Source: a virus
Direction: 5' to 3' (one strand)
Length of the DNA: 25,973 nt
IMG/VR virus record: IMGVR_UViG_3300020473_000112
Coordinates: 1 to 25,973 of that record
Shown here: piece by piece, positions 85 to 25,973 of the stretch
How the letters are laid out: each line of letters opens with the position of its first letter
Position numbering within the stretch: the first letter of the stretch is position 1
Notes under the pieces: model-generated
Databases searched by the model: none
Told to the model about the DNA's origin: nothing
Seen by the model: only the letters and a program-made list of their open reading frames with translations
Position numbers and translations under genes: made by a program

Positions 85-1557
85 TTAGAGAAGTGTGTAC
101 AGACCTGATTCTGTAAACTCTAACTTACCATCATTTCTCAGTTTCTGCAACTCTGATCTTAGTGTTCCCTCAAAAGAATTCATACTTTTGAATGTACTTA
201 CACATTTGCGAACTGGATAAACAATATCAGATGCAGACTGGAAGTTAAAAGGAACACCTCTTTCAAAGTTTTGATTGAGGAGAGTATAAGTCATCTCATA
301 CAAAGTCCTTAAATCTTCATCAGTTAAACCACCTTTCTTAGATTTCTTAGATTTCTTAGCTTTCTTAGCCTCAACCTCTTCAGGATCATTAACTGCATTG
401 TGACAAGTTTCAAGTAATCCAGTAGGAGATTCTAATGGAACTAACTGTGAAGCACCGTTCTCACCTACATCTGTCTTAGCAACATGAGGTAAACGATAAC
501 CTATCTTAAGATACTTTAGGTAGTCTGTTTTACCACCAGTAAGTTCGGTTATCAATCTCAAATATTCTTCAAGAACTTTTAACTGGTCATAGCAAAGCTT
601 TTCTACTTTACTTGCCTTATCAATTTTCTTGACATTGAGATACAAGTTGATAATAGATGTTATATCGTTTTTAGCATCTACTAAGAACTGGGGAAGAAAA
701 TCACGATAGATGTGAACAGGAGCCATAGCACTTATCAATCTATTGACCTGACTGTTAGTAACCTTTACTTTGCTGCTTACTTCCCTTATCTTAACTCCAC
801 GCTTAGAGCAATAACCCTTTGCATCTTGACGAGTAAAGTGAACTAAGAAAGATTGTTTTTCAGTTGAGTTAAGGATTCTAGCAATTAGAAGTTCCTGAGT
901 GGCAGAAGTTTGATGCTTGGCATATTTCCTGACCCACTTTGTAACCAGAGTTACAATTTTTTGTGGAATGGGTTGAGTTTCTCTATCCCAATTCTCAAGG
1001 ATTAACTCAACATCCATTTTTGCTCTTCTACCTTGCCACCAATTAATTCCGTTGATAGCAAAGTCCTCAAACTTAGCAGGAGTTCCCTTTGGAAGTGGTT
1101 GAAATAAGAGTCCAACTTCATAATGAACATCAGCTCTAGTGCAACCAACTTTAGGAACTACTCTAAAGGTTGGGCAAGATGTGATCCCTCTTAATTCTAA
1201 GTCCCATAATCTATGAGCCCCGTTTAAGCGAGTATTGTCCTCAAAGGAAAATGGTGGCATGCAGTTAGGATTCCAACCATCTTTAAAATTTCTTTGTACT
1301 GTTGCTAGAGCATCTGGATCATTACCTTTCGCTCTACCAAAGTTAGCGTCTCCAAGATTTCTTAGATGACTTACATTTGCAGATTCGCAACGAATAATTG
1401 TGCAATTCTCAAAAAGATCATTTAGTCTATCAATTTGACTGTTGTAGTGATCTACTAGTTTTTGCATCCCGTCAGCAGTCTGGAATTCCTCCCAAGACAT
1501 AAAGTCCGTTGTTGAACCATCAAGATCAGGGATCTCAAAATTTGGATAATTAGTCAT
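85..1557 (-). CDS. ParB-like nuclease-fold protein with Lys-rich linker and C-terminal winged-helix-like domain
   Basis: This is a 490-residue protein starting at the ATG at 1557. The frame stays open to a TTG at 1608, but the added residues look unlike a conserved N-terminus. Residues about 84-135 resemble the ParB/sulfiredoxin N-terminal fold: a PP pair, then NGAHRLWDLELRGI (112-125), like the [D/N]GxHR...A...G signature. Near residue 415 a Lys-rich linker (KKAKKSKKSKKGG) leads to a last ~75 residues ending in TLRSELQKLRNDGKLEF, which resembles winged helices found at the C-termini of some restriction enzymes. ParB-like domains often accompany phage and plasmid methyltransferases. The gene lies directly downstream of such a pair but has its own promoter. 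It could bind DNA, assist methylation or act as a nuclease; I see no proven catalytic motif. It is the last gene before the terminator. Confidence 0.6.
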   Translation of the reverse strand: MTNYPNFEIPDLDGSTTDFMSWEEFQTADGMQKLVDHYNSQIDRLNDLFENCTIIRCESANVSHLRNLGDANFGRAKGNDPDALATVQRNFKDGWNPNCMPPFSFEDNTRLNGAHRLWDLELRGITSCPTFRVVPKVGCTRADVHYEVGLLFQPLPKGTPAKFEDFAINGINWWQGRRAKMDVELILENWDRETQPIPQKIVTLVTKWVRKYAKHQTSATQELLIARILNSTEKQSFLVHFTRQDAKGYCSKRGVKIREVSSKVKVTNSQVNRLISAMAPVHIYRDFLPQFLVDAKNDITSIINLYLNVKKIDKASKVEKLCYDQLKVLEEYLRLITELTGGKTDYLKYLKIGYRLPHVAKTDVGENGASQLVPLESPTGLLETCHNAVNDPEEVEAKKAKKSKKSKKGGLTDEDLRTLYEMTYTLLNQNFERGVPFNFQSASDIVYPVRKCVSTFKSMNSFEGTLRSELQKLRNDGKLEFTESGLYTLL

Positions 1558-1655
1558 ATTTAAAGTGCCTATGGCATAATATGGTGAACATATCAAGAAT
1601 ACTAACAAGTGTTTATTGCTGCGATAGCTTCACTTGATTTCCTCTCAACATTTGT

Positions 1656-1683
1656 ACTATAACATAACCAGAATGAATGTCAA
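1656..1683 (-). promoter_or_regulatory. Sigma70-type promoter of the ParB-like gene
   Basis: On the minus strand TTGACA (1683-1678) and TATAGT (1661-1656) are separated by 16 bases. A start near 1649 gives a leader of about 90 bases before the ATG at 1557. The leader contains AGAGGA followed by a very short GTG frame, and a weak CAAGTG/CACTTG inverted pair. The consensus -35 suggests recognition by the unmodified host holoenzyme, that is, early expression. Confidence 0.7.
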
Positions 1684-1700
1684 GTGTGTGTCGAATTATT

Positions 1701-2102
1701 TCAAAAGAACTGCTCAACACCTATCGGTTCACCAAAACTATAGTCGTATTTCAAAGCATCTGCACAAACATAGTGCGGATGATGAACTGTCACACCTAAA
1801 CGACCACATAGTTCCTTGTGGTTATCCTCTAGTAATTCTACTGCATATAGCATATGATTCAACACATGCTTCTCACTATGATACAAACAGAGGCGTTCCT
1901 TTAGTCCAATTAAGAAATTGCCACTACCAGCACAATTATCAATGAATTTGCTGTTAGGATCTTTCAATAACGAAACAGCAATCTCATCTATCATCAATTC
2001 TACCAACTCAGCAGGTGTGAATACCTCTTGGGTTTCTTTTATTCTTTCATCAGATCTTTCAATACTAGATCCAGTCTCTATATTATGCTTATTCTTTTTC
2101 AT
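1701..2102 (-). CDS. N6-adenine DNA methyltransferase, SAM-binding half (motifs X-I-II-III)
   Basis: A 133-residue protein carrying the AdoMet-binding half of a class I N6-adenine methyltransferase: VFTPAELVELMIDEI (motif X-like), FIDNCAGSGNFLIGL (motif I, the SAM-binding GxG loop), MLYAVELLEDN (motif II-like acidic residue) and CADALKYDYSF (motif III-like). It ends where a normal enzyme would continue to the catalytic NPPY motif. That motif is instead at the start of the gene transcribed just before it (2664-2089), so the halves are encoded in swapped order. The start overlaps the upstream gene by 14 bases, and an in-frame TAG directly precedes the ATG, so no longer start exists. There is no clear Shine-Dalgarno, so translation is probably coupled. 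I infer that the two polypeptides assemble into one enzyme. Confidence 0.82.
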   Translation of the reverse strand: MKKNKHNIETGSSIERSDERIKETQEVFTPAELVELMIDEIAVSLLKDPNSKFIDNCAGSGNFLIGLKERLCLYHSEKHVLNHMLYAVELLEDNHKELCGRLGVTVHHPHYVCADALKYDYSFGEPIGVEQFF

Positions 2103-2664
2103 CTAGACATTGAATATAAGTTGTAATCAAATCATTCTTACCAAAGTGATACCTTCCATTACATTGGGTTGCTACCTCTCTAAACTTAGGAGCGAACTCA
2201 ACTAGATTCTGTATAACCTCTGGTGATCTAACATTTAGAAAGTGATGTCCCTTAGCATAATGTGTAAAGTTCTCGGTCTTTACTACTCCACTAGGACCAC
2301 ATCCATACTCACCAACGAAAACATCTGCTTCAAATCTATCTTTGTAATCTAGAAATTCAAAATCTGGATGCTCGGTGTGCATAGGAATCTCGTTCACTCC
2401 TATTTCAAATCTCGATGTGTTTTTTACTTTCCAATACTGTTTCACAGCATTGATTCCACCAGGAAAAGTAGCACTGTCTAGATCATCATCAACTTCACAA
2501 TGGAGATATGGTTTAATCTTATTCTGACAAGAAGGTTTCCTCATAGAGGTAGGTAATACAAACCTAATATCATCTGTGATCTCGGAAGTTTTATTTAATA
2601 TCTTTATAGCAAGATTCCCTCCTACACCATAAGGAGGGTTTCCTATTGCAAGAGTAAATTTCAT
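2089..2664 (-). CDS. N6-adenine DNA methyltransferase, catalytic half (NPPY motif IV and probable target-recognition part)
   Basis: A 191-residue protein starting MKFTLAIGNPPYG. NPPY is the catalytic motif IV of N6-adenine methyltransferases, here within the first 12 residues, with FVLPTSMRKPS following like the next conserved block. The remaining ~130 residues are a plausible target-recognition region. No SAM-binding motif I is present; it is in the next gene downstream. Together the pair shows the order IV-VIII-(TRD) then X-I, as in beta-class enzymes, although NPPY and CAGSGNFL look gamma-like. Naturally split methyltransferases are known (M.AquI, M.EcoHK31I). Expression is from a near-consensus sigma70 promoter so close that the mRNA is probably leaderless. 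Phage uses include self-protection from host restriction or regulation. Confidence 0.82.
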   Translation of the reverse strand: MKFTLAIGNPPYGVGGNLAIKILNKTSEITDDIRFVLPTSMRKPSCQNKIKPYLHCEVDDDLDSATFPGGINAVKQYWKVKNTSRFEIGVNEIPMHTEHPDFEFLDYKDRFEADVFVGEYGCGPSGVVKTENFTHYAKGHHFLNVRSPEVIQNLVEFAPKFREVATQCNGRYHFGKNDLITTYIQCLDEKE

Positions 2665-2670
2665 AATAAT

Positions 2671-2699
2671 AGTATACTAAAAATCTAGTTCACTGTCAA
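2671..2699 (-). promoter_or_regulatory. Near-consensus sigma70 promoter of the methyltransferase genes, probably giving a leaderless mRNA
   Basis: Minus strand: TTGACA (2699-2694), exactly 17 bases, TATACT (2676-2671), then six bases and the ATG at 2664. The expected start point is at or within a base or two of the A of ATG, and there is no Shine-Dalgarno. The -35 is one base away from the stop codon of the preceding structural gene, so the promoter fills the whole intergenic gap. Confidence 0.83.
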
Positions 2700-2700
2700 G

Positions 2701-5700
2701 TTACATTATATTTCTTTCTTCTATATCAGCACCACCAGGTCCTATAGCAGTGAATTTATATTTCGTTGATGCCATTGGTTCTACATTATCAGATCCAGTC
2801 TTTCCAGCAAATTGGAATGTAGGATCATTAGGTGTTGCTGTTGCTGTTAATGTATTCTCAGCATCAGTAGACCAAGATAAAGCAGCACCTAGATATATGA
2901 CATCTTGCCATTCGTGTAATATTTCAAATCTACCATTAGCATCAGTACTATCATCATCTAATAATTGTATTTCTTTTCCTTGTTGGAATTGCATCCTAGA
3001 AGCATTAGGATAATTCTTACCAGCATCAACATTTCTAGGATTCAATCCACCCCATTCAATAGGATAAGCTCCTTGTGGTAAATCAAAGTTTTGTATAGTA
3101 GATCCAGTTCTCTCATATCTAAGATTACTTGTTCTTCTAGAAGATATCATATAATCTGGATAACCATCATCGTCATCATCATCAAATCTATCATCCCATG
3201 ATGGCCAACTACCCCTCATCATAACAAAAGCAACTCCACCTGGATTATATGCCCAATCATCATTTGCACCTTCTACTGGTTCCTGTCCAGCAGGGAACTT
3301 AGAGTTCTTTATAGTAACATCTAAATTATAATCACCTGGTGTAAATCTTGAATCATTAGCAGGGAATGTTAAATCCAGTACATCACCACCTTCACCAGGA
3401 TTACTAAATTCTGCAATCCTACCTATTTCTCTAGTTGATTCTCCAACTTTTCCCAGTGCAAATGTTGCCTGATTATCTGCCTGTGCAACTAATCTAAATG
3501 ATTGGCTATTATTTCTAGGAATAGAAAATCTATATCTGAGTGTATGTACCTCATCAGCTAATGTTTGATGTGGATACCTATTATATTCAATATCCTCATT
3601 ATCCATATAATTAGCATCACCAGGGAAGATTGCATACACTTTCATATACTGTGACCAGTTATTTTCCATTCCTGGTGATTTGTTAGGGTTATTATAAGAA
3701 AGATACCAAGTTTTTGATGGTAGTCTGAATATTCTACCAGCAACTTCCATTCCACTCATATGAACACCCAATCCTTCTCTATCATTCCAACTATATTTAA
3801 TTCTGAAATTACAAATATTACCATCAGAACTGTCAGGTGGTGCTGTTACAAGTAGATTTGCTGCTCCATCTGCACCATATCCATCAGTTCCATTACCAGC
3901 ATCATCTCCAAATCTAACATAATGTGGTTTACTTACAGTAACCGTTGCAGGTGATGGTACTGGTGGTATTGGAGCTCCACCACCGATACAATCTCCTGTA
4001 TATTTTCCTTTTAGTGTACTATCTGATATTGTTCCACCTATTACCCAGTTCTTTGCTCCAGTATCAGGATTCAATCCACAAATAGCAGCACCACCTTTAC
4101 CAGCATCTTGTAATGGTGCAGCATCTAATGGTGCTGTTGGTTGACCATCTTTTCCCCAATCTCCACCATCACCACCTTTACCACCTGCACTAGAACAATT
4201 TCCACCCTGTAAATTAGTTCCTTCAGGACAAACTCCACACTGAGGTTCTGTACCATCACCACCTTCAGTTTCTTCTTGAGGACCTCCAAAAGGATTAGGC
4301 ATGGTATACCTCCATCCAGCACCATCTCCACCTCTACCACCTATACCTTGAATTGGTTCAGTAGATTTTACAATATTTTGACAAACACCAGTCTTTGTTT
4401 GATCTTCTCCTTCAGGTCCACAAGGTCCAGTACTTTCAACAGAACCTGGAACTAAGGTATCACCAGCATTACAAGTTGGTTCTTGTCCACATCCACTATT
4501 TACAACATAATTTTTAACACAATTATGTTTCATATCTTCCATAGAAGAACCAATAAGTTCTCCCATAGTGCCTTGTTCACCACCGCCACCGCCACCCCAG
4601 ACTTTAGCGTTATTCTTTAGGTAAATATCAGTTTGACTTCCAGTATGAAGTATTTTTAATGCTACTCCACCATCTTTACCTGGAGCAGATTTCTTAGGAA
4701 CACCATTTGTATATCCACCATTTGGATCATATCCACCTAAACCAGCAGATCCATAAATTGCTCCACTATCCTCAACATATATTCTAACATTATGTGCTGG
4801 AACTGCTGCATTATTTGGTTCGCTTGGTATTAACCTAGCAGCAGGTACTTTATCCTTACCATTACCAACATCACTATGATATCCATCAGTACCCATATCA
4901 CCAGAATATAGTACTTTAGTAATATAAATGTGCTTTTGAACATTTCTTGCAACATTACCATCAAGTTGATTAATACTATCTACTCCCTGTGTACCACCAT
5001 TACTCCAATCTGCTCCATTAGCACCACTAAATCTACCCATACTTAATTGAGAAATAGCACCTCCAGTACCTCCACCTGTATTATTTGTGGTTGCATAATA
5101 TCTTTTTACTGATCCTCTAAATTGACTTGTCTTCCAATCAAATCCAGCAATAGGTGTTACATTACTATTTTCTGTAGAATCTGGGACAATAGGATTTCTG
5201 TCAAGATCATTAATATTTCTTTTAAGTTCTTTTGCTGATACTGATCCAGTAGTTTTTTCTTTGAAATAACTCCTCATCTGACTGAACTTAATAGGAACAC
5301 TTCCAGTGAAATATGGTCCTGCTTTCTCAATATCTAAAAAAGCAGAAGCATGCATTGTTAATGGTCCTCCATTTGAGGTTTTATCACTATAAGAAGGATC
5401 TTCAGAAGTATTAGATGATGTTACTATTAACTTACCACCCATTCCAGCGTGATAAGAACATTGATAATAATATGTTCCTGTACTACCAGCAGGTGCAGTC
5501 CAATAGACAACACCATTTGCTAATCCTTGACCAGTTACACCAGATATTTGATCTCCAGATCCTAAAGATGCTTGCGTTTTAAGATAAAATGGATGTCCAG
5601 AAGCATCTACTAAAAAATTAACTCTCTCACCTTCCTTTATTGTAATATCAATATCATCTCCAGATACATTACCAGTACTATCCTTACCTACAAGAGTATA

Positions 5701-6006
5701 ATCTGCAGCACTAGCAGCAGTTACATCTATACTATATCCAGGTAATGGTGCAGAACTTTGAATAACAATGGTTCCACCCATTGCAGCATGATTTCCACAT
5801 TTATAATAATAAGTACCAGCATCACCACCTACAGTCTGCCATATAACCATACCATCTGTAGTACCATTATTACTTACACCAGAAACTTGATCACCTGATC
5901 CTGTTGTATCTGTCGTTTTAATATAAAATGGATGCCCAGTTGCACCATCTACATTAAGATTAATTCTATCACCTTCCTTAAATGTTATCGTAGGATTACT
6001 AGCCAT
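2701..6006 (-). CDS. Tail-fibre/adhesin-like structural protein with two cupredoxin-like domains and a Gly/Cys-rich centre
   Basis: A 1101-residue protein. Residues 1-83 and 90-197 are two homologous cupredoxin-like domains with GHPFY near the middle and YYYxCxxHxxMGG near the end. They carry His25/Cys70/His73/Met76 and His138/Cys183/His186/Met189, a complete type-1 copper ligand pattern with amicyanin-like Cys-x2-His-x2-Met spacing. The first domain lacks its expected first strand, which is found at the end of the upstream 2176-residue protein. Residues about 230-260 (SVPIKFSQMRSYF) resemble segments common in marine phage structural proteins. Residues about 470-690 are rich in Gly and contain ten Cys (GGGGGGEQG, GGKGGDGGDWG, GKGGAAICG), reminiscent of T4-like gp38-type Gly-rich receptor-binding regions. 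The C-terminal ~400 residues look beta-rich. The role is inferred to be host-surface recognition on the virion. Confidence 0.7.
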   Translation of the reverse strand: MASNPTITFKEGDRINLNVDGATGHPFYIKTTDTTGSGDQVSGVSNNGTTDGMVIWQTVGGDAGTYYYKCGNHAAMGGTIVIQSSAPLPGYSIDVTAASAADYTLVGKDSTGNVSGDDIDITIKEGERVNFLVDASGHPFYLKTQASLGSGDQISGVTGQGLANGVVYWTAPAGSTGTYYYQCSYHAGMGGKLIVTSSNTSEDPSYSDKTSNGGPLTMHASAFLDIEKAGPYFTGSVPIKFSQMRSYFKEKTTGSVSAKELKRNINDLDRNPIVPDSTENSNVTPIAGFDWKTSQFRGSVKRYYATTNNTGGGTGGAISQLSMGRFSGANGADWSNGGTQGVDSINQLDGNVARNVQKHIYITKVLYSGDMGTDGYHSDVGNGKDKVPAARLIPSEPNNAAVPAHNVRIYVEDSGAIYGSAGLGGYDPNGGYTNGVPKKSAPGKDGGVALKILHTGSQTDIYLKNNAKVWGGGGGGEQGTMGELIGSSMEDMKHNCVKNYVVNSGCGQEPTCNAGDTLVPGSVESTGPCGPEGEDQTKTGVCQNIVKSTEPIQGIGGRGGDGAGWRYTMPNPFGGPQEETEGGDGTEPQCGVCPEGTNLQGGNCSSAGGKGGDGGDWGKDGQPTAPLDAAPLQDAGKGGAAICGLNPDTGAKNWVIGGTISDSTLKGKYTGDCIGGGAPIPPVPSPATVTVSKPHYVRFGDDAGNGTDGYGADGAANLLVTAPPDSSDGNICNFRIKYSWNDREGLGVHMSGMEVAGRIFRLPSKTWYLSYNNPNKSPGMENNWSQYMKVYAIFPGDANYMDNEDIEYNRYPHQTLADEVHTLRYRFSIPRNNSQSFRLVAQADNQATFALGKVGESTREIGRIAEFSNPGEGGDVLDLTFPANDSRFTPGDYNLDVTIKNSKFPAGQEPVEGANDDWAYNPGGVAFVMMRGSWPSWDDRFDDDDDDGYPDYMISSRRTSNLRYERTGSTIQNFDLPQGAYPIEWGGLNPRNVDAGKNYPNASRMQFQQGKEIQLLDDDSTDANGRFEILHEWQDVIYLGAALSWSTDAENTLTATATPNDPTFQFAGKTGSDNVEPMASTKYKFTAIGPGGADIEERNIM

Positions 6007-6014
6007 TAGTCTCT

Positions 6015-9000
6015 CTAAATTGTGCCGTTTCTATCTACTCCTGTTAGTATATATTCATTATTATTAGGTGCTGTCACTCTTATACAATATCCTGGTTGAG
6101 AACTGTCCCTGATAGTTACAGCAAGAGTATTACCAACCTGAATTGTTCTATCAGCATTAATGTATAATTTAATAGAAATTACTTCATCACCTTCAGTAAT
6201 TGCATCTTCTTTAATTGTATGATTAAAGGTAAAAGTATTACTTGTAATAGTACCCGAACCAGTAGTAGTATCTGCTAGATTAAAGTCATCCTCAGATACT
6301 CCAGTACCACTTAATGCCCAATAAAGAACAGTTCCTTCAGCAACATCAGTTGTAGTAACTGTAGTTGTAAATGAATCTCCTTCATTAAATCGGGTAGCAG
6401 TAGTAGAAAGAGTATAAGTAGGACTTCCTGATGATTCTGAAGTATCTTTAATAAGAACATTTGTAGTTGCTACTTGATTAGTTCTTGCAGAATCAGTGAA
6501 TAATTTAATTACAGCAGTTTCATCTCCTTCAGTAGTTACATCAAGAGAAGTTGTATGAGAGAATGAAAATGTTCCATTAGCTGCAGTAACATCATCACCA
6601 GTCAATGCACCTGAAGAGAAATCAGAAGCATCTAAATTAGTACCACTTAATGACCAATATAAAGTTGTTCCTTGAGCAACATTACCAGTAACAACTTCTG
6701 TAGTCCAAGCTCCACCTTCATCAATCTGACTTACATTAGTATTCAATGCATAGGTAGGAGTTGGTGTAGTTGATGTATCATTAATAGTAACATTAAGTGT
6801 ATTACCAACCTGAGTTGTTCTTGCAGAATCAGTGAATAATTTAACCAAAAGAGTCTCATTTCCTTCAGTAAGAGCATCTGATTTTATACTGGTTGACCAA
6901 TTATTAACTCCACTTGCAGGAATTACAGTATTACTTTCTAATGTTCCCTCCATAAAGTCAGCAGCAGCTATACCAGTTCCACTAAATGACCAATATAATG
7001 TTGTATTTTCTGCAACATTAGTTGTTGTAGCAGTGATTATAAGTGATGAACCTTCATCTATTGGATTAGTATTTGCTGAAAGCACATATGTGGGTGATCC
7101 TGATGGTTGAGATGTATCATTAATTGTAATTACTGCTGAAGTTGCTACAATATTACTAAAACCAGCATCAGTAGCTAATACAATCGCAAACTTTTCTTCT
7201 CCTTCTGTTGTTGCGTCAGCAGCAATAGTATGAGAGAAAGTAATAGTATTATTTGATATAGTATCATCACCAGTCCAAGAACCTGAAGAAAAATCAGCAG
7301 CATTTACAGATCCAGTATGCTGATCTAACGACCAATATAAAGTAGTTCCTTGAGAAACATTACTTGTAGTAACTGTAGTTGTAAGGGTTTCTCCTTCATT
7401 AATAGAAGTTTTAGATGGTGTAATAGAATATGAGGGAACTACAGGAGTTTGTGATGTATCATTAATAGTAACATCTACAGTAGATCCTACTTGAACTGTT
7501 CTTCCAGAATCTGAATATAATTTGATATTAACAGTCTCTGCTCCTTCAGTAGTAACATCTTCATCAAGTGTATGTGAGAAATTAAATGAATTACTCGTTA
7601 TAGTTCCAGATCCAGTCAATGAACCTGAAGAGAAATCAGAAGCATCAACATTAGATCCACTTAATGCCCAATATAAAGTTGTATTTTCTGGAACATTAGT
7701 TGTCGTAACTGTAGTTGTAAAACTAGAACCTTCATTAACACTGGTAGGTGAAGCAGATATAGTATAAGTAGGAGCATCTACAGAAGTATCAACAATAGTA
7801 ATTGTAGAAGAAGTTGCAACTAAATTTGATCTTGAAGAATCTGTGTATAATTTTAATGTAAATGTCTCATTTCCTTCTGTGGTAGTATCGTTAGATATTA
7901 CACGAGTGAAAGTAAATTGCCCATTACTATCAAGAGTTCCTGACCCTTCTAATCCACCACTAAAATCACTAGCATTTAAAGTATTAGATATTGGATCTAT
8001 CTTCCAATAAAGAGTAGATCCTACTGAAGCATTAGTAGTAGAGACAGCAGCATACATAGTCTCACCTTCATTATAAGAAGTCTTTGCTGCTGCTATTCCA
8101 TAAGTAATACCTAATGAAGTATCCTTTATAACCTGTGTCCAAGTACTAGCAACCTGATTTGTTCTACCTGAATCCGTATATACTTTTAGATTAAATGTCT
8201 CATCACCTTCAGTAGTTACATCATTCGCTAATGTATTTGTCCAAACTGCATTACCAGAACTATTAACTGATGATGATCCAGTTAATGATGTAGTGAAATC
8301 AGCACCTGTTATATTAGTTCCAGATATTTCCCAATAAAGAACAGTTCCTGTAGTAACATTAGTTGTAGCAACAGTGGCTACTATATTAGAACCCTCATTA
8401 ACAGAACCTGTTGGTGTGCAACTCAAACTATATGATGGAGAGGCATCCACAGATGTATCAACAACAGTAAGACTACTATTTGATGCTACTTCATTTGTTC
8501 TAGCAGAATCAGTATATACTTTGAAAGTAATTACTTCATTTCCTTCTGTCGTAGAATCTTCTGCTAAAGTATAATCAGCAAAGAATGTATTATTAAATAC
8601 AGACCAAGATGATTGTAGTTGACCAGATGAAAGGTCATTAGCAGATATACCAGTCAAATCTGTATATAAGACTGTTCCATTCTCAACATTAGTTGTTGTA
8701 AGTGTATACCTAACAGTTTCTCCTTCATTAATACTTAATTCATCAGGTGCTATTGAATAAGTTGCACCTTTAGAGGTATCTTCAATATTAACATTAGCTG
8801 TGGCAACCTGAGTATTTCTAGAAGCATCTGTAAATAACTTAATATTAATAGTCTCTGTTCCCTCTGTACTTAAATCATTAGCAAGAGTATGATTGAAAAC
8901 AGCATTTCCATTAGCAGCAATAGATACCTGTCCAGTTAGAGAACCTGATGAAAAATCACCAGAAGTTATACCAGTTCCAGATAAACTCCAATATAAAGTA

Positions 9001-12000
9001 GTATTCTCAGCAACATAAGTGGTTTGAACAGTAGTAATAAGTTGTGAACCTTCATTAACAGTCAATAAATTAGTAGTTAGAATATAAGTTGGAGTTGTAT
9101 CTTCAGGTAAAGTAACATCATCAGCAACATTTAAATAATAATATACTAAACCTTGCCTAGAAATAACAAAGTTACCATTGACAACTCTTATACTAAAGTA
9201 AGTATAAGTAGATCCACCATCATTAGAAACTTCAAGAATTTGATCATTTGATCCCGATTTAATCCTAAACTTGATATTACCACGCTCAGCTGAGGTCATA
9301 TCATTAGTTGGATAAACTGGATAATATCTAACACCAGCATCAGCACCACCAACAACCCTTAGAGAAACAGGAACACTAACATCTGATTCTGAAAATTCCC
9401 TAATACCCCTAATCATCATAGTAACACCAGATTCTGAAGTTATAGTAAATCTTTCATTTAAATTTCTAGTTGCATCAATTCCACTATCTACTGTATAACA
9501 AGGATTGGGAGTGTTTATATGTGTAGTTACCTCTTTAATTACTTTAATAGGATCACCCATATTAGAATTTCCAAGTAACCATAATGGATCATTTGGATTA
9601 CTACTAGATGGTTTATATCCATTAAAGAAACTAGTTGCATCTGGAGTATTAGACTTTAAATATGATTTAAGATGAACTGGTGATGTGTGCCTATTTTGTT
9701 GTAGAACACATGCAATAGTACCAGCAAGAGCTGGGCAAGCAGAAGAAGTACCATCAAACCAACCATCAAGATATGCTTGAGATGAAGAGCTCCAACTTGC
9801 AGGAATATCATCATTTCTAGTAACATACCTGTTATCATTGGAGACAATTGAATTTGAACTCCCACAAGCTGATAACATACCATCAGCAGGTGCAAAAAAG
9901 TCTACAGCAGATCCTTTACAACTATAAAATCCACCATCAGTCATTTTACGACCAAAATACCATCCACTAAATCTATCTTTCCAAAATGGATAATCTTCAT
10001 AATTAACAGTAGCTCCAAAATCTAAAGCTGAAGGATTTCCTCTTGGACCTCCCATCGCCATAGATTCTAACTTATCACCTGTAAAATTAGAATCTACAGT
10101 TCCACTATCATTTTTTGGATCTGCACTATGATCACTAAATGGATAATTTGAATTATATCTATCATCCATTGCACCTACAGATAAGATAGTGTTTAATCCA
10201 GTTGCGTCATATGCAAGTTGTGATGGATAACTTGAACGATTGGGATATACTTTTGCATGACTTGAGTTATCACCTGCTACACCTTTAATTGTTCCATCAT
10301 CATTAAGTCTTGCTATCCAATTATCATAATTAGGATCATCTTTAGTTACAAAATAATTCTGATCATTTCCTGCAGAATTACAAAAATGAATTCCACTATT
10401 AACAGCTTCTAATGCAGCATTATATTCTGCTGCAAATCCTTCACGGGGATCATCAGTATTCTCTGCTCTAAGATGTGGAGACATTTTCCAATAATATCCA
10501 AAAGCATAATATCCAGTTGATACAAGTGCATTTCTACTAGAGGTTCTAATAAATGCTGGTAGATTAGTAACCCAAGGATTTGAATAAGAATTGTAATCAA
10601 ACCCACTTCCAGGTCCATCTGGATATTCACTATAAGAATTTCCATAAACATCCGTAGTAGGTCTATTTGGAAATGATGCCTCTGTTCCTTGATAATTATA
10701 CTTAACTCTTTCCATTCCAGATACAAAAAATCCAACATAAGCACTACCATATCCCCAACTATTACTAGAAACAGTTGGATTTTTTATAGAATTTCCACTA
10801 AACTTAGGATTATTTGGTTTAGTCTTATGAAATATTTTTTGCATCGTCCAACCACTTTCTGTAGGAACTCTGGTGGACATATCAATAGCACATATTGCCC
10901 ATTTATTACAATTGAACGCTTTTCCAAAATTCTTACCATATGCAACACCACCACACTTAGTTCCATGATCATTCACAGTAGGAAGTGTAGTATCAGTTCC
11001 ACAATTAGCTGCTCTTGTATAATTTGATGGAATAGTTATACTAAACGAACCAGTACCTGCAGCTGTACTGACAGCATTAAAAGTAGATGATCTAAGCACT
11101 GAACTATACCACCAATTTCTTGCAGTACCTTCATCTGGGACTATTGTTCCATCCCATCTAGTTATTAGCCTACTAGAAGGATCTGCATCAAACCATTCAG
11201 GATCAAGATAATATGGAGCATCCAACGCTAAATCTAAAACACCAGATTTTCCAGATCTAGATAAAACATTACCTGGAATGAAGTTTTGGGGATCTTTATC
11301 ATTAGTACAAAATTCTGGATGACCAGTCCAAGTACCAGTATCAACAATAATTAAATCAATATCAGTTCCATCATTATCATATGTAACATCACTGTTTACT
11401 ATAGCATTTGCATCTGAAGACCAAGGATTAGTACCAGCCGTAGACATTCTTAATGGACCATAATTGGTTCTATTATCTTCAGAACTAGGAATTGAAGCAG
11501 ATGTACCACTAGGAAAAGCATGAGTTAATGGTTGAGAAGGAAATGCACCACCTTGAAGTTCTGTAGTTACAAATCCTAAATGAAGTAGTTTCCAACCAAT
11601 TCCTGCAGGATTATTAGCCCAATTTCTTTTATTTGGATCAGTAGCAGTACCATTTCTTACTTTACATGTTATCTGTATTTGCGTAGACGCTGATATGTAT
11701 CCAAGATTTATAATCTCATGAAAATGCCCTCTACCTCTCTCATCTAAATCTAGAGTTCTAAATTTACTATCATTATTTTCTAATTTAAATCCAGTTGCAA
11801 CATTTTCAACCATACATCCTGCCCATTCACCATCAGCCCAGACTTGTAGTTGATAATGTCCTGCAGATGAGCAAGTAACAGTATTTGAAACCGTTTGTAT
11901 AGATGCTCTTAAAGGATCTTGATCATTAGCATTTGCAGGAGCAGATGGATATACAGCATAATCCTTCAAATCTTGACAAATTACACCCCAATAATTCATT

Positions 12001-12545
12001 GCAGGAGTATTTGGATGACTATCTGATACTTTTATCCAATTAGGAGAACCAGTAGTAGCAATTAAAGAATTTGCAACCTCAGTTGGTGTAGATGGACTAT
12101 TATTTTCTTTACTTAAATTCCTATAATTTTTTACATTCTTACCAAATCTATTAATTGAATGCACTTCAACAGGTATTCTAGCTTCTTCATGAAACTCAGG
12201 ATCTAACTGAACCCATTCAATATCAGGATGACTTTTTAGAGTATCTGCTTCTGTTTTAGTTAATTCATAACAACCTGTAGTTTCACTATGAGTTCTTTCA
12301 TTTTTACATAAAATTTGCCTAATTGGTACACTGGAAGTATGAGAACCACTACCCATCAATTCTAAATGTACTTTTTTCCAGCACTTACCATCTTTTGCTT
12401 TAATTTGATAGTTTTTTATTTCATCAGGTGCTGAATTATTAATTACACCAAAGTTATGAGTTCCACTCCAATATGCCTTACCAACCTCTTCACCAAGTTT
12501 TAGCTCTTCTTCAGAGAGCAAATAAGTTGAAAATCCAATTGACAT
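6015..12545 (-). CDS. Giant structural protein: subtilisin-like (S8) protease plus nine Calx-beta-type repeats
   Basis: A 2176-residue protein. Residues about 75-105 (ELTKTEADTLKSHPDIEWV) resemble an I9-type subtilase propeptide. The catalytic domain spans about 395-960: Asp402 in IIVDTGTWTGH, His527 in NDHGTKCGG, oxyanion Asn727 in NSAGND and nucleophile Ser934 in GTSSACP. All four are present, so the protease looks active. The spacing is much longer than in secreted subtilisins, implying insertions. A beta-rich linker follows, then nine repeats (about 1150-2148), each opening like PTYxLxxxxxxxNEG and closing xINDTS, typical of the Calx-beta family, which binds Ca2+ through acidic loops. The last residues, from PGYCIRV to DRNGTI, match the first strand of the cupredoxin-like domain that continues in the next gene 8 bases on. 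A Shine-Dalgarno TAAGGAG (12561-12555) includes the upstream stop codon. A role in adhesion with surface proteolysis or self-processing is inferred. Confidence 0.8.
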   Translation of the reverse strand: MSIGFSTYLLSEEELKLGEEVGKAYWSGTHNFGVINNSAPDEIKNYQIKAKDGKCWKKVHLELMGSGSHTSSVPIRQILCKNERTHSETTGCYELTKTEADTLKSHPDIEWVQLDPEFHEEARIPVEVHSINRFGKNVKNYRNLSKENNSPSTPTEVANSLIATTGSPNWIKVSDSHPNTPAMNYWGVICQDLKDYAVYPSAPANANDQDPLRASIQTVSNTVTCSSAGHYQLQVWADGEWAGCMVENVATGFKLENNDSKFRTLDLDERGRGHFHEIINLGYISASTQIQITCKVRNGTATDPNKRNWANNPAGIGWKLLHLGFVTTELQGGAFPSQPLTHAFPSGTSASIPSSEDNRTNYGPLRMSTAGTNPWSSDANAIVNSDVTYDNDGTDIDLIIVDTGTWTGHPEFCTNDKDPQNFIPGNVLSRSGKSGVLDLALDAPYYLDPEWFDADPSSRLITRWDGTIVPDEGTARNWWYSSVLRSSTFNAVSTAAGTGSFSITIPSNYTRAANCGTDTTLPTVNDHGTKCGGVAYGKNFGKAFNCNKWAICAIDMSTRVPTESGWTMQKIFHKTKPNNPKFSGNSIKNPTVSSNSWGYGSAYVGFFVSGMERVKYNYQGTEASFPNRPTTDVYGNSYSEYPDGPGSGFDYNSYSNPWVTNLPAFIRTSSRNALVSTGYYAFGYYWKMSPHLRAENTDDPREGFAAEYNAALEAVNSGIHFCNSAGNDQNYFVTKDDPNYDNWIARLNDDGTIKGVAGDNSSHAKVYPNRSSYPSQLAYDATGLNTILSVGAMDDRYNSNYPFSDHSADPKNDSGTVDSNFTGDKLESMAMGGPRGNPSALDFGATVNYEDYPFWKDRFSGWYFGRKMTDGGFYSCKGSAVDFFAPADGMLSACGSSNSIVSNDNRYVTRNDDIPASWSSSSQAYLDGWFDGTSSACPALAGTIACVLQQNRHTSPVHLKSYLKSNTPDATSFFNGYKPSSSNPNDPLWLLGNSNMGDPIKVIKEVTTHINTPNPCYTVDSGIDATRNLNERFTITSESGVTMMIRGIREFSESDVSVPVSLRVVGGADAGVRYYPVYPTNDMTSAERGNIKFRIKSGSNDQILEVSNDGGSTYTYFSIRVVNGNFVISRQGLVYYYLNVADDVTLPEDTTPTYILTTNLLTVNEGSQLITTVQTTYVAENTTLYWSLSGTGITSGDFSSGSLTGQVSIAANGNAVFNHTLANDLSTEGTETINIKLFTDASRNTQVATANVNIEDTSKGATYSIAPDELSINEGETVRYTLTTTNVENGTVLYTDLTGISANDLSSGQLQSSWSVFNNTFFADYTLAEDSTTEGNEVITFKVYTDSARTNEVASNSSLTVVDTSVDASPSYSLSCTPTGSVNEGSNIVATVATTNVTTGTVLYWEISGTNITGADFTTSLTGSSSVNSSGNAVWTNTLANDVTTEGDETFNLKVYTDSGRTNQVASTWTQVIKDTSLGITYGIAAAKTSYNEGETMYAAVSTTNASVGSTLYWKIDPISNTLNASDFSGGLEGSGTLDSNGQFTFTRVISNDTTTEGNETFTLKLYTDSSRSNLVATSSTITIVDTSVDAPTYTISASPTSVNEGSSFTTTVTTTNVPENTTLYWALSGSNVDASDFSSGSLTGSGTITSNSFNFSHTLDEDVTTEGAETVNIKLYSDSGRTVQVGSTVDVTINDTSQTPVVPSYSITPSKTSINEGETLTTTVTTSNVSQGTTLYWSLDQHTGSVNAADFSSGSWTGDDTISNNTITFSHTIAADATTEGEEKFAIVLATDAGFSNIVATSAVITINDTSQPSGSPTYVLSANTNPIDEGSSLIITATTTNVAENTTLYWSFSGTGIAAADFMEGTLESNTVIPASGVNNWSTSIKSDALTEGNETLLVKLFTDSARTTQVGNTLNVTINDTSTTPTPTYALNTNVSQIDEGGAWTTEVVTGNVAQGTTLYWSLSGTNLDASDFSSGALTGDDVTAANGTFSFSHTTSLDVTTEGDETAVIKLFTDSARTNQVATTNVLIKDTSESSGSPTYTLSTTATRFNEGDSFTTTVTTTDVAEGTVLYWALSGTGVSEDDFNLADTTTGSGTITSNTFTFNHTIKEDAITEGDEVISIKLYINADRTIQVGNTLAVTIRDSSQPGYCIRVTAPNNNEYILTGVDRNGTI
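6100..9097 (-). repeat. Nine tandem Calx-beta-type coding repeats (~333 bp each)
   Basis: Nine in-frame copies average 111 codons. Hallmarks in each copy are an N/DEG near the start, TTLYWxLSG or a variant in the middle, a TEGxE motif and a final DTS/DSS. Amino-acid divergence is moderate but some DNA stretches are identical, for example 28 bases at 6481-6508 and 6817-6844. This suggests recent duplication or gene conversion and a potential for copy-number change. Confidence 0.85.
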
Positions 12546-20367: not shown

Positions 20368-20895
20368 CTACAATCTAAGGATTTTGTCAATATTCATAGA
20401 GATACACATTCTCTTTCCTTTAGTGGGTGGAATCTCATGAAATAAAATTGATGGCCAAACTAAAAGCAATCCATTTTCTGGTGTGATGCTAGTTTCATCT
20501 TCAAATATAATCGGTGAGCAATCATCCTCAACATCAATATAATAGCAACAAGAAAATGCACTAGTAGGAAAATGATGATGCTTAATAGCAAAATCACCTT
20601 CTTCATACATCATTGCCCACATATTAATAGGTTGATACGAACTATCTAACTTATAATAAGAACAAGATATAAATTCACAGACACTGCACACCTCTTCAAT
20701 TAATGGATTAAATTTATCAGTTTCGTGATGTGTATAATATGAACTTGTCCATGATGACTTTACATTAGTCTCATTAGTTTCTGGATATTTTTTTCTATGA
20801 TTTAAAACATCCGTCTTCAAATAAGTATAATTTTGCAAATTAGTATAAAAAATACTTACAGAACTATTAACATTCTCTACACCAATATCAATCAT
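20368..20895 (-). CDS. 2OG-Fe(II) oxygenase-like protein (putative hydroxylase)
   Basis: A 175-residue protein matching the shape of the small phage/bacterial 2OG-FeII_Oxy_5 family. WAMMYEEGDFAIKHHHFP (93-110) supplies the first metal ligands (His106-108), TSAFSCCYYIDV is the following strand, LLLVWPSILFHEIPP carries the distal His153, and KRMCISMNI has Arg162, which would bind the 2-oxoglutarate carboxylate. Family members couple oxidation of 2-oxoglutarate to hydroxylation of a substrate; the substrate here is unknown. Its ATG overlaps the carbamoyltransferase stop as ATGA, so the two are translationally coupled and probably act together. An unusual feature is the three consecutive His where HxD or HxH is expected. 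A link to the Lys-rich collagen fibre is a hypothesis only. Confidence 0.75.
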   Translation of the reverse strand: MIDIGVENVNSSVSIFYTNLQNYTYLKTDVLNHRKKYPETNETNVKSSWTSSYYTHHETDKFNPLIEEVCSVCEFISCSYYKLDSSYQPINMWAMMYEEGDFAIKHHHFPTSAFSCCYYIDVEDDCSPIIFEDETSITPENGLLLVWPSILFHEIPPTKGKRMCISMNIDKILRL

Positions 20896-22619
20896 TTAGA
20901 TATTATATAATTCCCAATAACAAGATAATCTATATCCATCTTTTTAAATGCATTCATAGCATCTTCTGGAGTTTCTATTATAGGTTCTTTATTGTCATTA
21001 AACGATGTATTTAATAATATTGGATTCTTTAATTTACGAAGTAAAGAACTCATCTTAGAATTCAACTCATCATCAACTGTTTGCATTCTACATGTTCCAT
21101 CTACATGAGTGATAGCAGGAATATCATCAGTTAATACTTTATGATTAAAAAGCATATATGGGGAAGATTCATATCCACTTCCCTCCAAAGTTATACCAGC
21201 AAAAGGTCTCCAATACTCTCTGTGCTTAACTCTCTTATTCATTATATCCTTATTTTCTTCTTTATGAGGACTCATTAAAAGAGATCTAGATCCAAGAGCA
21301 CGAGGACCAGCTTCAGATCTACCTTGAAACCATCCAATAATCTTATCATCCTCAAGATACTTAGCAACTACTTCACATAGTTCATCAAAATCTTTATACT
21401 TAATATATTTAATTTCTCCTATATTTTTCAAATCATTAAATCCTATTGCCTTTTCAATCTCTTTATCATTATAAGATTTACCTAAAAGAGCAATATTGTG
21501 TGGTATTTCAATCTCATATTTAAGTCTATATGCTGCCCAAGCTGCTGCTCCAAAATGAATACCTGAATCATTAGTATTGGGTGGAATATGTATATTCTTG
21601 AATAAAGGTCTTAACTTATCATTAGCAGTAATATTTAAAAAACAACCACCAGCAAAACACACATCATCCGTAAGATAATCATCTCTAAGTTCTTTAATTA
21701 AATATAAAAGAGCTTCTTCATAATGCTTTTGTACAAAGAAAGCCTTATCTGCTGGAGAAATTTTCATTTTTAACATATTTTCAACAACTCCACCAGTAGG
21801 ATGAAAATTTATATAAGGAAGACCCATTTCATACCTATCAATTTGAAATGCATCTAAAGCATCTAAAGGAGATGCTGCATAAGGTCTAGTATTTTCTGTA
21901 CAATATTGAGGCCAATCATATCCCCTATCCTTGCCATAAGCAGATAATCCCATTATCTTACCTTCACAATTCAAGAAATCCTCAAAAGCCTTTTCTGGTT
22001 CATCACTGTAAATATCCTTTTGTATATGAAGTGCTATAGCTCCATAAAACTGACCAAAAACATTAGTTCCTGAAAACGAACCCCATGATGGCATCCTAAA
22101 AAATCTGAATATTCTTTTCTTTTTATCAAAATATCCAATACTATTATGTTCACCTTCAGGTGTATTGGCTAAATTAAAGTTCCACATAGAACTTCCCATT
22201 CCATCTAGTGTTAAAAAACTACCACTATTAAAAGGAGAAGTAAAAACAGCAGAGGCAGCGTGACATAGATGATGACCAACAAACCATAATTTAGCATTGG
22301 GAAAAAGACCTTTAAGTTTTTGAGATGCAATTTTATTAATCATTTGAAAATTGCAATCTTCTACACCCGTAGGTGCAAAACATACTACATCAACATCTTC
22401 TCTAGTAAGATCTCCAAGACAATAATCTATTGCCTTTAATGGCAGTCTTCCGTCGTGTTTTAATCTAGATACTCGTTCTTCATCAACACTTCTAATATGT
22501 TTTCCATCTACAAATAAAGTGCATCCAGCATCATGCACTGTATCTTCATATGTACCTTTATTTTTCCAACCACCTGCACCAGCAACATCTAAGGAACCGT
22601 GTATACCAATAATATTCAT
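20892..22619 (-). CDS. Carbamoyltransferase (NodU/CmcH/TobZ family)
   Basis: A 575-residue, apparently full-length member of the O-carbamoyltransferase family, which uses carbamoyl phosphate and ATP to carbamoylate a hydroxyl via carbamoyl-adenylate. Visible motifs are HDAGCTLFVDG (29-39), DEERVSRLKHDGRLP (46-60), the metal-binding HHLCHAASA (His116 and His120 in an HxxxH pattern), LTLDGMGS (137-144), AGGCFLN, GRSEAGPRALGSRSLL around residue 436, REYWRPFAG and ILLNTSFNDNKEPI around residue 536. Kae1-like and C-terminal domains are therefore both intact. Genes of this family occur as auxiliary genes in marine T4-like phages, but the acceptor is unknown. It is followed by the oxygenase with an ATGA overlap and preceded by a TATAAT-type element. 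It may modify a glycan, nucleotide or fibre protein. Confidence 0.88.
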   Translation of the reverse strand: MNIIGIHGSLDVAGAGGWKNKGTYEDTVHDAGCTLFVDGKHIRSVDEERVSRLKHDGRLPLKAIDYCLGDLTREDVDVVCFAPTGVEDCNFQMINKIASQKLKGLFPNAKLWFVGHHLCHAASAVFTSPFNSGSFLTLDGMGSSMWNFNLANTPEGEHNSIGYFDKKKRIFRFFRMPSWGSFSGTNVFGQFYGAIALHIQKDIYSDEPEKAFEDFLNCEGKIMGLSAYGKDRGYDWPQYCTENTRPYAASPLDALDAFQIDRYEMGLPYINFHPTGGVVENMLKMKISPADKAFFVQKHYEEALLYLIKELRDDYLTDDVCFAGGCFLNITANDKLRPLFKNIHIPPNTNDSGIHFGAAAWAAYRLKYEIEIPHNIALLGKSYNDKEIEKAIGFNDLKNIGEIKYIKYKDFDELCEVVAKYLEDDKIIGWFQGRSEAGPRALGSRSLLMSPHKEENKDIMNKRVKHREYWRPFAGITLEGSGYESSPYMLFNHKVLTDDIPAITHVDGTCRMQTVDDELNSKMSSLLRKLKNPILLNTSFNDNKEPIIETPEDAMNAFKKMDIDYLVIGNYIISK

Positions 22620-23528: not shown

Positions 23529-25973
23529 TTAATTCTTTGTGCATATTATAACATCAATATACTGAACTGCAACATTTACATTATCACTACCACTAATACT
23601 AACAGTATCACTACCACTAATACTAACAGTATCACTGCCACTAAAACTACCACTGATGTTTACAGTATCACTGCCACTGAAACTGAAGTTAGATCCATTA
23701 ATATAATACATTATAACTGCGTGTGTGTGGTAGTTACTGCCACCCCTAGCCTGAGTATTAGGTTGTCCTGAAGAACCAGAATTTTGAGTATCTACAAATC
23801 CATGTTGTCCACCAGAAGTACCAATTGGATTATGGTATTGGTGAGTGTGAGATGGCATCTGATCTATCGATAACCAATTTTGAGTGGTAGTAACATACAT
23901 TACCTGTTGTCCAGTACAATTACCACTGATGCTTACTGTATCGCTACCACTAAAACTACCACTAATACTTACAGTATCACTATCACTAATACTTACAGTA
24001 TCACTACCACTAATACTTACAGTATGATTTTGAAAAGCACTAGTAAATGATTGACTACCACCAGAACCACCACCAGAACCACTTACAACTCTGAGTGCTT
24101 TATTATTATGTGATGTTGATTTTGTCCATCCAGTAGGAGCAGAAGATTGATAGAACAACATGGTAGATCCAGAAGGAACAGATGGACTAGATGTACTACC
24201 TGTATCTCCTTTTTGACCCTTGGTTGAGTTATCTTCTCCTTGTTCACCCTTTTGACCTATACCAATCTCACCTTTCTGTCCTTTGGTGGAGTTATCTACT
24301 CCCTTTTGTCCCTTTTCACCTACACCAATCTCACCTTTTTGTCCAATCTCACCTTTCTGACCTTTAGTAGAGTTATCTTCTCCAGTTTCTCCCTTTTGAC
24401 CTACACCAATCTCACCTTTCTGACCCTTATCTGCAGTCTCACCCTTTACTCCTTTTTGCCCAACACCTGTAGTTCCTTTCTGCCCTACATCACCTTTTTC
24501 ACCTTTTTCACCCTTAGTAGAATTATCTTCTCCCTTTTGACCCTTAGTAGAGTTATCTTCACCCTTTTCTCCCTTTTCACCTACTCCAGCTTGTCCTTTT
24601 TGCCCTTGATCACCCTTCTGTCCTATTTCACCTTTAGTACCTTTATCACCTTTAGGACCAAGACCACTAATATTAATGGTTCCTGTCATACTACTATGAT
24701 ATTGGCAAATATAATACAAAGTATTAGGTGCATCATATGGAACAGCAAATGTTAATACACCAGATTGTGTACCATTATTTGTTACTCCTGAAGTATATGC
24801 ACTACCTGTACCAGTAACTTGTGATGTTTTAATCCAGAATGGATGACCACTTGCATTTACAGTAAAGGTATAAGTAAATCCCCTAATCAATTCAAGAGTC
24901 GGATCACTAGCACCATCTATAGTGTAATCACTTGAATTACCAGCAGTTACATTATAATTTCTTGCACCCAACTGACCTTTATTACCTTTATCACCTTGAT
25001 CACCCTTATTACCCTTATCACCAGGCACAGTAGATTCTTCACCTTTTTGTCCTTTAACTTCTTCACCTTTTTGACCCTTGGTTGAATTATCTTCACCCTT
25101 TATTCCTTTCTCACCAACTTCACCTTTCTGACCTTTAGTGGAGTTATCTTCTCCTTTCTGTCCTTTAACAGTACTAGGTTCACCTTTATCTCCAGTATCT
25201 CCTTTCTCTCCTTTTTCTACTTCTCCTTTTTGTCCTTTGGTGGAGTTATCATCACCCTTCTGCCCTTTAACATCACTAGGTTCTCCTTTGACACCTACTT
25301 CACCTTTATCACCTTTATTACCTTGTGCTTCTACATCACCTTTCTGTCCTTTCTCACCTTCTTCACCTTTCTGTCCTACTTCACCCTTTTGACCCTTGGT
25401 TGAATTATCTTCACCTTTTTCACCCTTCTCTACTTCTCCCTTCTGACCTTTATTACCCTGTGCTTCTACATCACCTTTCTCACCTTTCTGTCCTACTTCT
25501 CCTTTTTGCCCCTTAGTAGAATTGTCATCACCTTTCTGACCCTTCTCTACTTCTCCCTTCTGACCTTTATCATTAGCTTCACCTTTTTGTCCTACTTCAC
25601 CCTTTTGACCTTTCTCAGCTAGTTCTCCTTTCTGACCCTTAGTAGAGTTATCTTCACCCTTTTGACCCTTAGTAGAATTATCTTCTCCCTTTATTCCTTT
25701 CTCACCTACTTCACCTTTAATACCTTTATCACCAGGCTCACCCTTATCACCCTGTGGTCCTAATGCACCATCACGGAATACAGATTCTGTTTGTGGTATT
25801 GGTGTTAACTCAAGCCATCCTTGATTACCAACATAGACTGCCAAGTTAAAATAATAATCTCCAGAAAGAGATCCCATATCTCCATCTTCTCTTAAGAAGA
25901 AAGTTGGAGCACTATCTGGACGAACTGGATCAGCTCTATTAAATGTTCCACCTACACCAGAAGTATAAACATA
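23529..25973 (-). CDS. Collagen-like tail fibre with cupredoxin-like insert and receptor-tip-like C-terminus (5' end outside the window)
   Basis: The frame stays open to the right edge (YVYTSGVGGTFNRADPVRPD at the edge), so the first ATG seen, at 25877, is internal and the gene is partial, with at least 814 residues visible. Order of parts: an N-terminal segment; a collagen-like Gly-x-y stretch (25769-24963) built from KGQKGE and KGEVGEKG units; a cupredoxin-like domain (about 24960-24665; His codon 24845-24843, Cys 24707, His 24698, Met 24689); a second collagen stretch (about 24660-24195); then a collar-like segment APTGWTKSTSHNNKALRVV; DTVSISGS repeats; and a tip containing SHTHQYH and YHTHAVIMYYI. 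HxH pairs in the T4 gp12 and gp37 tips bind metal between the three chains. Pro is scarce and KGE/KGD abundant, as in charge-stabilised bacterial collagens. A trimeric receptor-binding fibre is inferred. Confidence 0.83.
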   Translation of the reverse strand, partial: YVYTSGVGGTFNRADPVRPDSAPTFFLREDGDMGSLSGDYYFNLAVYVGNQGWLELTPIPQTESVFRDGALGPQGDKGEPGDKGIKGEVGEKGIKGEDNSTKGQKGEDNSTKGQKGELAEKGQKGEVGQKGEANDKGQKGEVEKGQKGDDNSTKGQKGEVGQKGEKGDVEAQGNKGQKGEVEKGEKGEDNSTKGQKGEVGQKGEEGEKGQKGDVEAQGNKGDKGEVGVKGEPSDVKGQKGDDNSTKGQKGEVEKGEKGDTGDKGEPSTVKGQKGEDNSTKGQKGEVGEKGIKGEDNSTKGQKGEEVKGQKGEESTVPGDKGNKGDQGDKGNKGQLGARNYNVTAGNSSDYTIDGASDPTLELIRGFTYTFTVNASGHPFWIKTSQVTGTGSAYTSGVTNNGTQSGVLTFAVPYDAPNTLYYICQYHSSMTGTINISGLGPKGDKGTKGEIGQKGDQGQKGQAGVGEKGEKGEDNSTKGQKGEDNSTKGEKGEKGDVGQKGTTGVGQKGVKGETADKGQKGEIGVGQKGETGEDNSTKGQKGEIGQKGEIGVGEKGQKGVDNSTKGQKGEIGIGQKGEQGEDNSTKGQKGDTGSTSSPSVPSGSTMLFYQSSAPTGWTKSTSHNNKALRVVSGSGGGSGGSQSFTSAFQNHTVSISGSDTVSISDSDTVSISGSFSGSDTVSISGNCTGQQVMYVTTTQNWLSIDQMPSHTHQYHNPIGTSGGQHGFVDTQNSGSSGQPNTQARGGSNYHTHAVIMYYINGSNFSFSGSDTVNISGSFSGSDTVSISGSDTVSISGSDNVNVAVQYIDVIICTKN
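23575..23690 (-). repeat. 24-bp repeats encoding GSDTVSIS (C-terminal block)
   Basis: Four to five in-frame units, each GSD(T/N)V(S/N)(I/V)S or a close variant, some identical over 24 bases, lie at the very end of the fibre. They are homologous to a second block at 23927-24027. The units alternate polar residues with small hydrophobics and probably form a narrow beta-structure. Confidence 0.85.
23927..24027 (-). repeat. 24-bp repeats encoding GSDTVSIS (upstream block)
   Basis: This second block of the same 8-residue unit (HTVSISGSDTVSISDSD, then TVSISGSF) precedes the HxH-containing tip. The tip segment between 23690 and 23927 therefore looks like a loop or domain inserted between two copies of one repeat ladder. 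Confidence 0.85.
24195..24660 (-). repeat. Collagen-like coding repeat, second stretch
   Basis: About 155 codons of mainly Gly-x-Lys-Gly triplets (GPKGDKGTKGE to GQKGDTGS), with five DNSTKG interruptions that shift the Gly register by one. The plus strand shows recurring 'cacctttttg' and 'cctttctg' pentads typical of such repeats. Confidence 0.85.
24963..25769 (-). repeat. Collagen-like coding repeat, first stretch
   Basis: About 269 codons from GALGPQGDKG to GNKGQLGA. Lys is very frequent in the y position before Gly, Glu/Asp after it, and Pro is rare. Seven DNSTKG interruptions and several GEVEKG and GDVEAQG breaks are spaced through it. Frequent internal DNA similarity suggests expansion by slippage or recombination. 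Confidence 0.87.

What the first reader, a model, noticed from the sequence alone, without database searches (positions are those of the whole stretch)
5387..6006. Two fibre domains with complete type-1 (blue) copper ligand sets
Both N-terminal domains of the 1101-residue protein contain His then, 45 residues later, Cys-x2-His-x2-Met (His25/Cys70/His73/Met76 and His138/Cys183/His186/Met189). This is the cupredoxin ligand set, with the C-x2-H-x2-M spacing of amicyanin. Blue copper domains normally carry electrons; on a phage fibre they could bind copper for stability, sense metal, or engage a copper-rich host surface. The ligands are retained in all three such domains in this window, arguing for selection.
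Basis: partly seen in the sequence, partly recalled or inferred. Interest (0 to 1): 0.75.

Follow-up and report, generated by a model that had tools for sequence, protein, structure and literature searches.

The report
Copper-ready domains on cyanophage tail fibres
Tail-fibre proteins of ocean viruses that infect cyanobacteria carry small domains that look able to hold a copper atom in the way 'blue' electron-carrying proteins do, and in this virus group one of these domains is divided between two neighbouring genes, which may couple two tail proteins.

Summary
The 1101-aa protein (2701-6006, minus strand) has His25/Cys70/His73/Met76 and His138/Cys183/His186/Met189; a third domain lies in the collagen-like fibre at 24660-24962 (spacing 46, not 45). 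Profile search, AlphaFold2 and structure comparison agree on a cupredoxin fold; amicyanin is the best solved-structure profile hit, with all four copper ligands in register. The ligands are among the most conserved positions in about 135 viral domains and in marine bacterial relatives. In ten whole phage records nearly every domain keeps them; in the clear exception three of the four are lost together. Copper binding is therefore likely (about 0.7), but electron transfer, sensing and receptor binding are untested.

Its first three strands are the C-terminus of the upstream subtilase-type protein, in another frame. The same split, always a -1 relation, occurs in seven related contigs, with purifying selection on the tail, so it is not a sequencing error. 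Most likely two translationally coupled chains complete one cupredoxin domain and so join protease and fibre. No paper describing either feature was found in the open library searched.

The parts
2701..6006 (-). 1101-aa fibre-like protein with two N-terminal cupredoxin domains
5752..6006 (-). Domain 1, downstream part (residues 1-85): carries all four copper ligands but lacks the first three strands
   Evidence: profile match starts at model position 22; AlphaFold2 pLDDT 93.6 for residues 1-89
6018..6089 (-). Domain 1, upstream part: C-terminal tail YCIRVTAPNNNEYILTGVDRNGTI of the 2176-aa protein, the missing first strands
   Evidence: best of 2148 windows against an independent profile, model positions 3-24; conserved in 7 contigs
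6004..6017 (-). Gene junction: TAG stop (6015-6017), 8 intervening bases, ATG (6004-6006), -1 frame relation
5413..5736 (-). Domain 2, complete cupredoxin domain
   Evidence: AlphaFold2 pLDDT 93.6; Z 11.3 to 2dv6
5932..5934 (-). His25, first ligand of domain 1
5779..5799 (-). Cys70-x2-His73-x2-Met76, ligand loop of domain 1
5593..5595 (-). His138, first ligand of domain 2
5440..5460 (-). Cys183-x2-His186-x2-Met189, ligand loop of domain 2
24660..24962 (-). Domain 3, cupredoxin domain of the collagen-like fibre (His345, Cys391, His394, Met397)
6015..12545 (-). 2176-aa upstream protein: subtilase-type region and Calx-beta-like repeats, ending in the domain 1 tail
   Evidence: phrog_9158 match; relatives annotated as subtilisin-like protease or PF00082; no Pfam hit of its own
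23529..25877 (-). 782-aa collagen-like tail fibre that carries domain 3

Best explanation
These are true cupredoxin-fold domains that serve as exchangeable extracellular modules of tail proteins in T4-like marine cyanophages. Each keeps a complete type-1 copper ligand set on one chain. The most likely mechanism is that the site takes up copper in the lysate or seawater and the metal locks the two ligand loops, rigidifying the exposed end of the beta-sandwich, so that the domain works as a stable linker or contact module on the fibre and not as an electron carrier. In this virus group domain 1 is also a joint: its first three strands are the C-terminus of the subtilase-like protein, translated just before the fibre, and the two chains complete one domain and so dock protease and fibre together. 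Shown: fold prediction, ligand conservation, conserved split, selection on the tail. Inferred: copper occupancy, stabilising role, two-chain assembly, virion location.
For: Fold: Pfam Copper-bind 24.1 bits over the 21.2 cut-off; amicyanin is the top solved-structure profile hit, 3.5e-5, ligands in register; AlphaFold2 pLDDT 93.6; Z 11.3 over 98 residues to 2dv6, 9.5 to rusticyanin. Ligands: 124 of 135 domains intact, 56 of 56 and 21 of 21 in the halves not used as bait; 10 of 10 domains of three whole phage genomes; S-B43 lost His, Cys and His together. Split: same -1 relation in window and seven contigs with different intervening bases; tail dN below dS; tail is the best of 2148 windows at model positions 3-24; joined halves match the length of a whole domain; the truncated domain aligns to 51-137 of 2dv6, the whole one to 24-137.
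Against: No metal was measured. Pro follows the first His where classic blue copper proteins mostly have Asn (own knowledge). Gly36, Pro49 and Tyr91 are as conserved as the ligands, so folding may explain part of the conservation. The truncated domain 1 is predicted with high confidence without its tail, so the tail may be dispensable. No two-chain model could be made.
Confidence: 0.55

Rival explanations
1. The domains bind no copper in nature, or another metal such as zinc; the motif is kept for folding and the domain is a plain structural module.
For: Non-ligand positions are equally conserved (G36, P49, Y91); a few copies without ligands persist, such as S-B43.
Against: Four ligand side chains of different chemistry are kept together over very diverged domains, and are often lost together.
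Confidence: 0.25
2. Copper on the fibre is used for adsorption: the loaded site docks on a copper-handling or metal-rich surface component of the host, as proposed for iron in phage tail fibres.
For: Tail location by family; published proposal for HxH iron sites in tail fibres, including cyanophages (PMC11705849).
Against: The domain also sits on subtilases, baseplate connectors and as linkers far from fibre tips, and in bacterial surface proteins.
Confidence: 0.12
3. Split explained otherwise: the two ORFs are joined by a programmed -1 frameshift into one chain of about 3,280 residues with an intact domain 1.
For: The -1 relation is constant in all eight contigs.
Against: No slippery heptamer is seen in the overlap; the fibre has its own ATG with a purine-rich stretch before it; the intervening bases differ in length and sequence.
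Confidence: 0.12
4. Split explained otherwise: the tail is a relic of gene fission and domain 1 folds without it.
For: AlphaFold2 predicts the truncated domain confidently on its own.
Against: Tail under purifying selection and better conserved than the repeat before it; no residue of the domain is missing when the halves are joined.
Confidence: 0.3

Closest known systems
Amicyanin (and the N-terminal cupredoxin domain of three-domain nitrite reductase 2dv6)
   Same: Cupredoxin fold, His ... Cys-x2-His-x2-Met ligand loop
   Different: Far below the amicyanin equivalog cut-off (15.9 against 110.2); on a phage tail protein; no methylamine dehydrogenase or other partner; Pro after the first His
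Phage-encoded plastocyanin PetE (PSSM2_230)
   Same: Cupredoxin in the related phage P-SSM2
   Different: Scores only 18.2 bits against the fibre-domain profile, where fibre domains of the same genome score up to 129: the fibre domain is not a recruited PetE
Cupredoxin-domain lipoprotein-like proteins of marine Flavobacteria (L127, L131, L145)
   Same: Closest cellular relatives, up to 59% identical to domain 2, ligands kept
   Different: Cell-surface type proteins of bacteria, function unknown; no phage tail context
HxH iron sites in phage tail fibres (T4 gp37, alterophage R22Y; PMC11705849)
   Same: Metal sites on phage tail proteins in marine phages
   Different: Iron held between paired histidines of trimeric fibres; here a predicted mononuclear copper site inside one domain
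Subtilase plus cupredoxin proteins of S-CAM4, S-H9-1 and ACG-2014 phages (phrog_9158)
   Same: Same protease and domain combination
   Different: There both are on one chain; here the domain is cut by the gene boundary

Membership tests
Cupredoxin superfamily / Pfam PF00127 Copper-bind | Cupredoxin beta-sandwich fold | tested here: met
   AlphaFold2 pLDDT 93.6; Z 9.5-11.3 to solved cupredoxins; Foldseek E 3.1e-5 to rusticyanin
Cupredoxin superfamily / Pfam PF00127 Copper-bind | Pfam gathering score | tested here: met
   24.1 against 21.2 bits for the whole protein; single domains fall below, 16.7-18.5 bits
Type-1 (blue) copper proteins | His, Cys, His, Met ligand set in cupredoxin positions | tested here: met
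   aligned with amicyanin; conserved
Type-1 (blue) copper proteins | Bound copper, band near 600 nm, small EPR hyperfine splitting | not testable with these tools
   needs expressed protein
Type-1 (blue) copper proteins | Electron transfer with a redox partner | not testable with these tools
   no partner gene seen in the window
Amicyanin (TIGR02657) | Equivalog cut-off | tested here: not met
   15.9 against 110.2 bits
Plastocyanin (TIGR02656) | Equivalog cut-off | tested here: not met
   19 against 87.85 bits
Programmed -1 frameshift | Slippery heptamer in the overlap | tested here: not met
   None seen by eye in the overlaps of the window or its relatives; no structure search was done
HxH iron tail fibres | Paired HxH motifs in a trimeric fibre | not tested
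   -

The most novel reading that the evidence does not exclude
A copper-site domain of a phage tail is built from two separately translated proteins, the last three-strand piece of a subtilase-like protein and the start of the fibre, so that strand exchange across a gene boundary couples a virion protease to a metal-binding tail fibre.
Probability: 0.42. Interest if true: 0.78.

Novelty: new variant of a known kind. Interest (0 to 1): 0.6.

Why it matters
If the sites hold copper, virions of abundant marine cyanophages carry several copper atoms each, which bears on virion stability, adsorption and trace-metal budgets, and adds copper to the iron sites already proposed for phage tails. The gene-spanning domain would be an unusual way to join two virion proteins with fixed stoichiometry and is easy to test with two short constructs.

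Tried and rejected
Sequencing error as cause of the split: rejected, seen in 8 contigs with diverged sequence. Recruited host or phage PetE: rejected on scores. Programmed frameshift: no slippery site seen. Stop-codon readthrough: rejected, the frames differ. Biased sampling (scan patterns contain the ligand motifs): checked with domains found by the other motif and by whole-genome profile searches. Paper searches for cupredoxin or copper domains on phage tails found nothing relevant; subscription papers and preprints are not held, so absence there is weak evidence. The BFVD search shows that the fold occurs in viral tail proteins annotated without mention of copper.

Full report
Observation. 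The window is a 25,973-base IMG/VR virus record, related to the Prochlorococcus phage P-SSM2 group (about 81% identity over 21% of the window). Shuffles give the pattern in 2 of 20,000 cases.

Fold and site. Pfam Copper-bind hits the protein above its cut-off. A profile of 20 viral domains finds amicyanin first among solved structures (3.5e-5), then nitrite reductases, plastocyanin and rusticyanin, with the His, Cys, His and Met of the phage domains on the copper ligands of amicyanin in the printed alignment. AlphaFold2 gives domain 2 at pLDDT 93.6 with nine strands; the best solved cupredoxins align over 96-98 residues at Z 9.5-11.3. It is not an amicyanin or plastocyanin by NCBI's equivalog cut-offs.

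Conservation. In 135 viral domains 124 have HCHM; most of the rest are broken or overlapping calls. Because the scans used motifs that contain ligands, three controls were made: 56 of 56 domains found by the Cys motif alone have the first His; 21 of 21 undamaged domains found by the His motif alone have Cys, His, Met; and profile searches of whole phage records gave 10 of 10 intact in P-SSM2, S-H9-1 and S-CAM4, one of them the true plastocyanin PetE, and nearly all in seven more. The exceptions are telling: S-B43 has Phe, Ala and Val at His, Cys and His, and single copies in L051 and L152 lost several ligands together, as expected if the site is either used or dismantled. Gly36, Pro49 and Tyr91 are also conserved, so conservation alone does not prove metal.

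Distribution. The domain is a module of many tail proteins of cyanophages: proximal tail fibres, baseplate wedge-fibre connectors, collagen-like fibres, S74-chaperone fibres, and subtilases. Marine Flavobacteria and others carry close relatives, some as small proteins with a lipobox-like N-terminus, up to 59% identical to domain 2, 73 of 78 with intact ligands. So the domain is an extracellular module shared by marine bacteria and their viruses, and not a recruited photosynthetic plastocyanin, which scores 18 bits where fibre domains reach 129.

The split domain. Domain 1 begins at profile position 22. The missing first part is in the upstream gene, whose last residues are YCIRVTAPNNNEYILTGVDRNGTI and then TAG; the fibre ATG follows 11 bases after the start of that stop codon, in the -1 frame. 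Seven related contig stretches have the same arrangement with 8 bases and other intervening sequence, while the rest of the fibre is only 46-52% identical. The tail scores best of 2148 windows of its protein against a family profile built without this clade, at model positions 3-24, and is under purifying selection (dN below dS in all pairs; 90-97% identical in pairs whose preceding repeat is 63-82% identical). Joined end to end, tail and downstream part match domain 2 in length. In solved relatives the truncated domain aligns to 51-137 of 2dv6 where the whole domain aligns to 24-137, so the tail stands for an integral part of the fold. In other cyanophages the protease and the domain are on one chain, and in P-SSM2 a subtilase gene directly precedes a proximal tail fibre with an N-terminal cupredoxin domain. 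No slippery heptamer was seen; a purine-rich, weakly Shine-Dalgarno-like stretch overlaps the stop codon, which fits termination-reinitiation. The most economical reading is two coupled chains that complete one domain. That they associate is inferred; the truncated domain is predicted well on its own, which keeps the relic reading alive.

Mechanism. Copper binding is likely on ligand evidence (about 0.7). Of the roles, metal-locked stabilisation of a linker or contact module is favoured because the domain occurs at many positions and in several kinds of tail protein, and no electron partner is in sight; adsorption through copper remains possible. Iron in tail-fibre HxH sites is the nearest published idea (PMC11705849). 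No paper on copper domains of phage tails was found in the open library.

Noticed in passing
L022 (same in L023, L024), ORF 1708-7011 +, residues about 1413-1545: The C-terminal half of the domain (CxxHxxM) precedes an N-terminal half (GHPFY), as in a circular permutation, or as the remains of a tandem pair.
   Followed up: partly
L187 (Prochlorococcus marinus MIT 9201), ORF 1560-10178: A host genome contig carries a giant repeat protein (2873 aa, open at the edge) with a related HPL...CxxHxxM domain.
   Followed up: no
L207 (Synechococcus phage S-B43), ORF 940-3267 +: A copy of the domain with three ligands lost together (Phe, Ala, Val), a natural copper-free control.
   Followed up: partly
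window 20892-22619, minus: Complete carbamoyltransferase gene (Pfam Carbam_trans N and C) between tail fibre genes, next to a 175-aa gene.
   Followed up: no
L051 ORF 1-1566 + residues 20-144; L053 ORF 3593-9838 + residues 587-699: Copies with Gln or Glu in place of the axial Met, as in stellacyanin-type sites for Gln.
   Followed up: no
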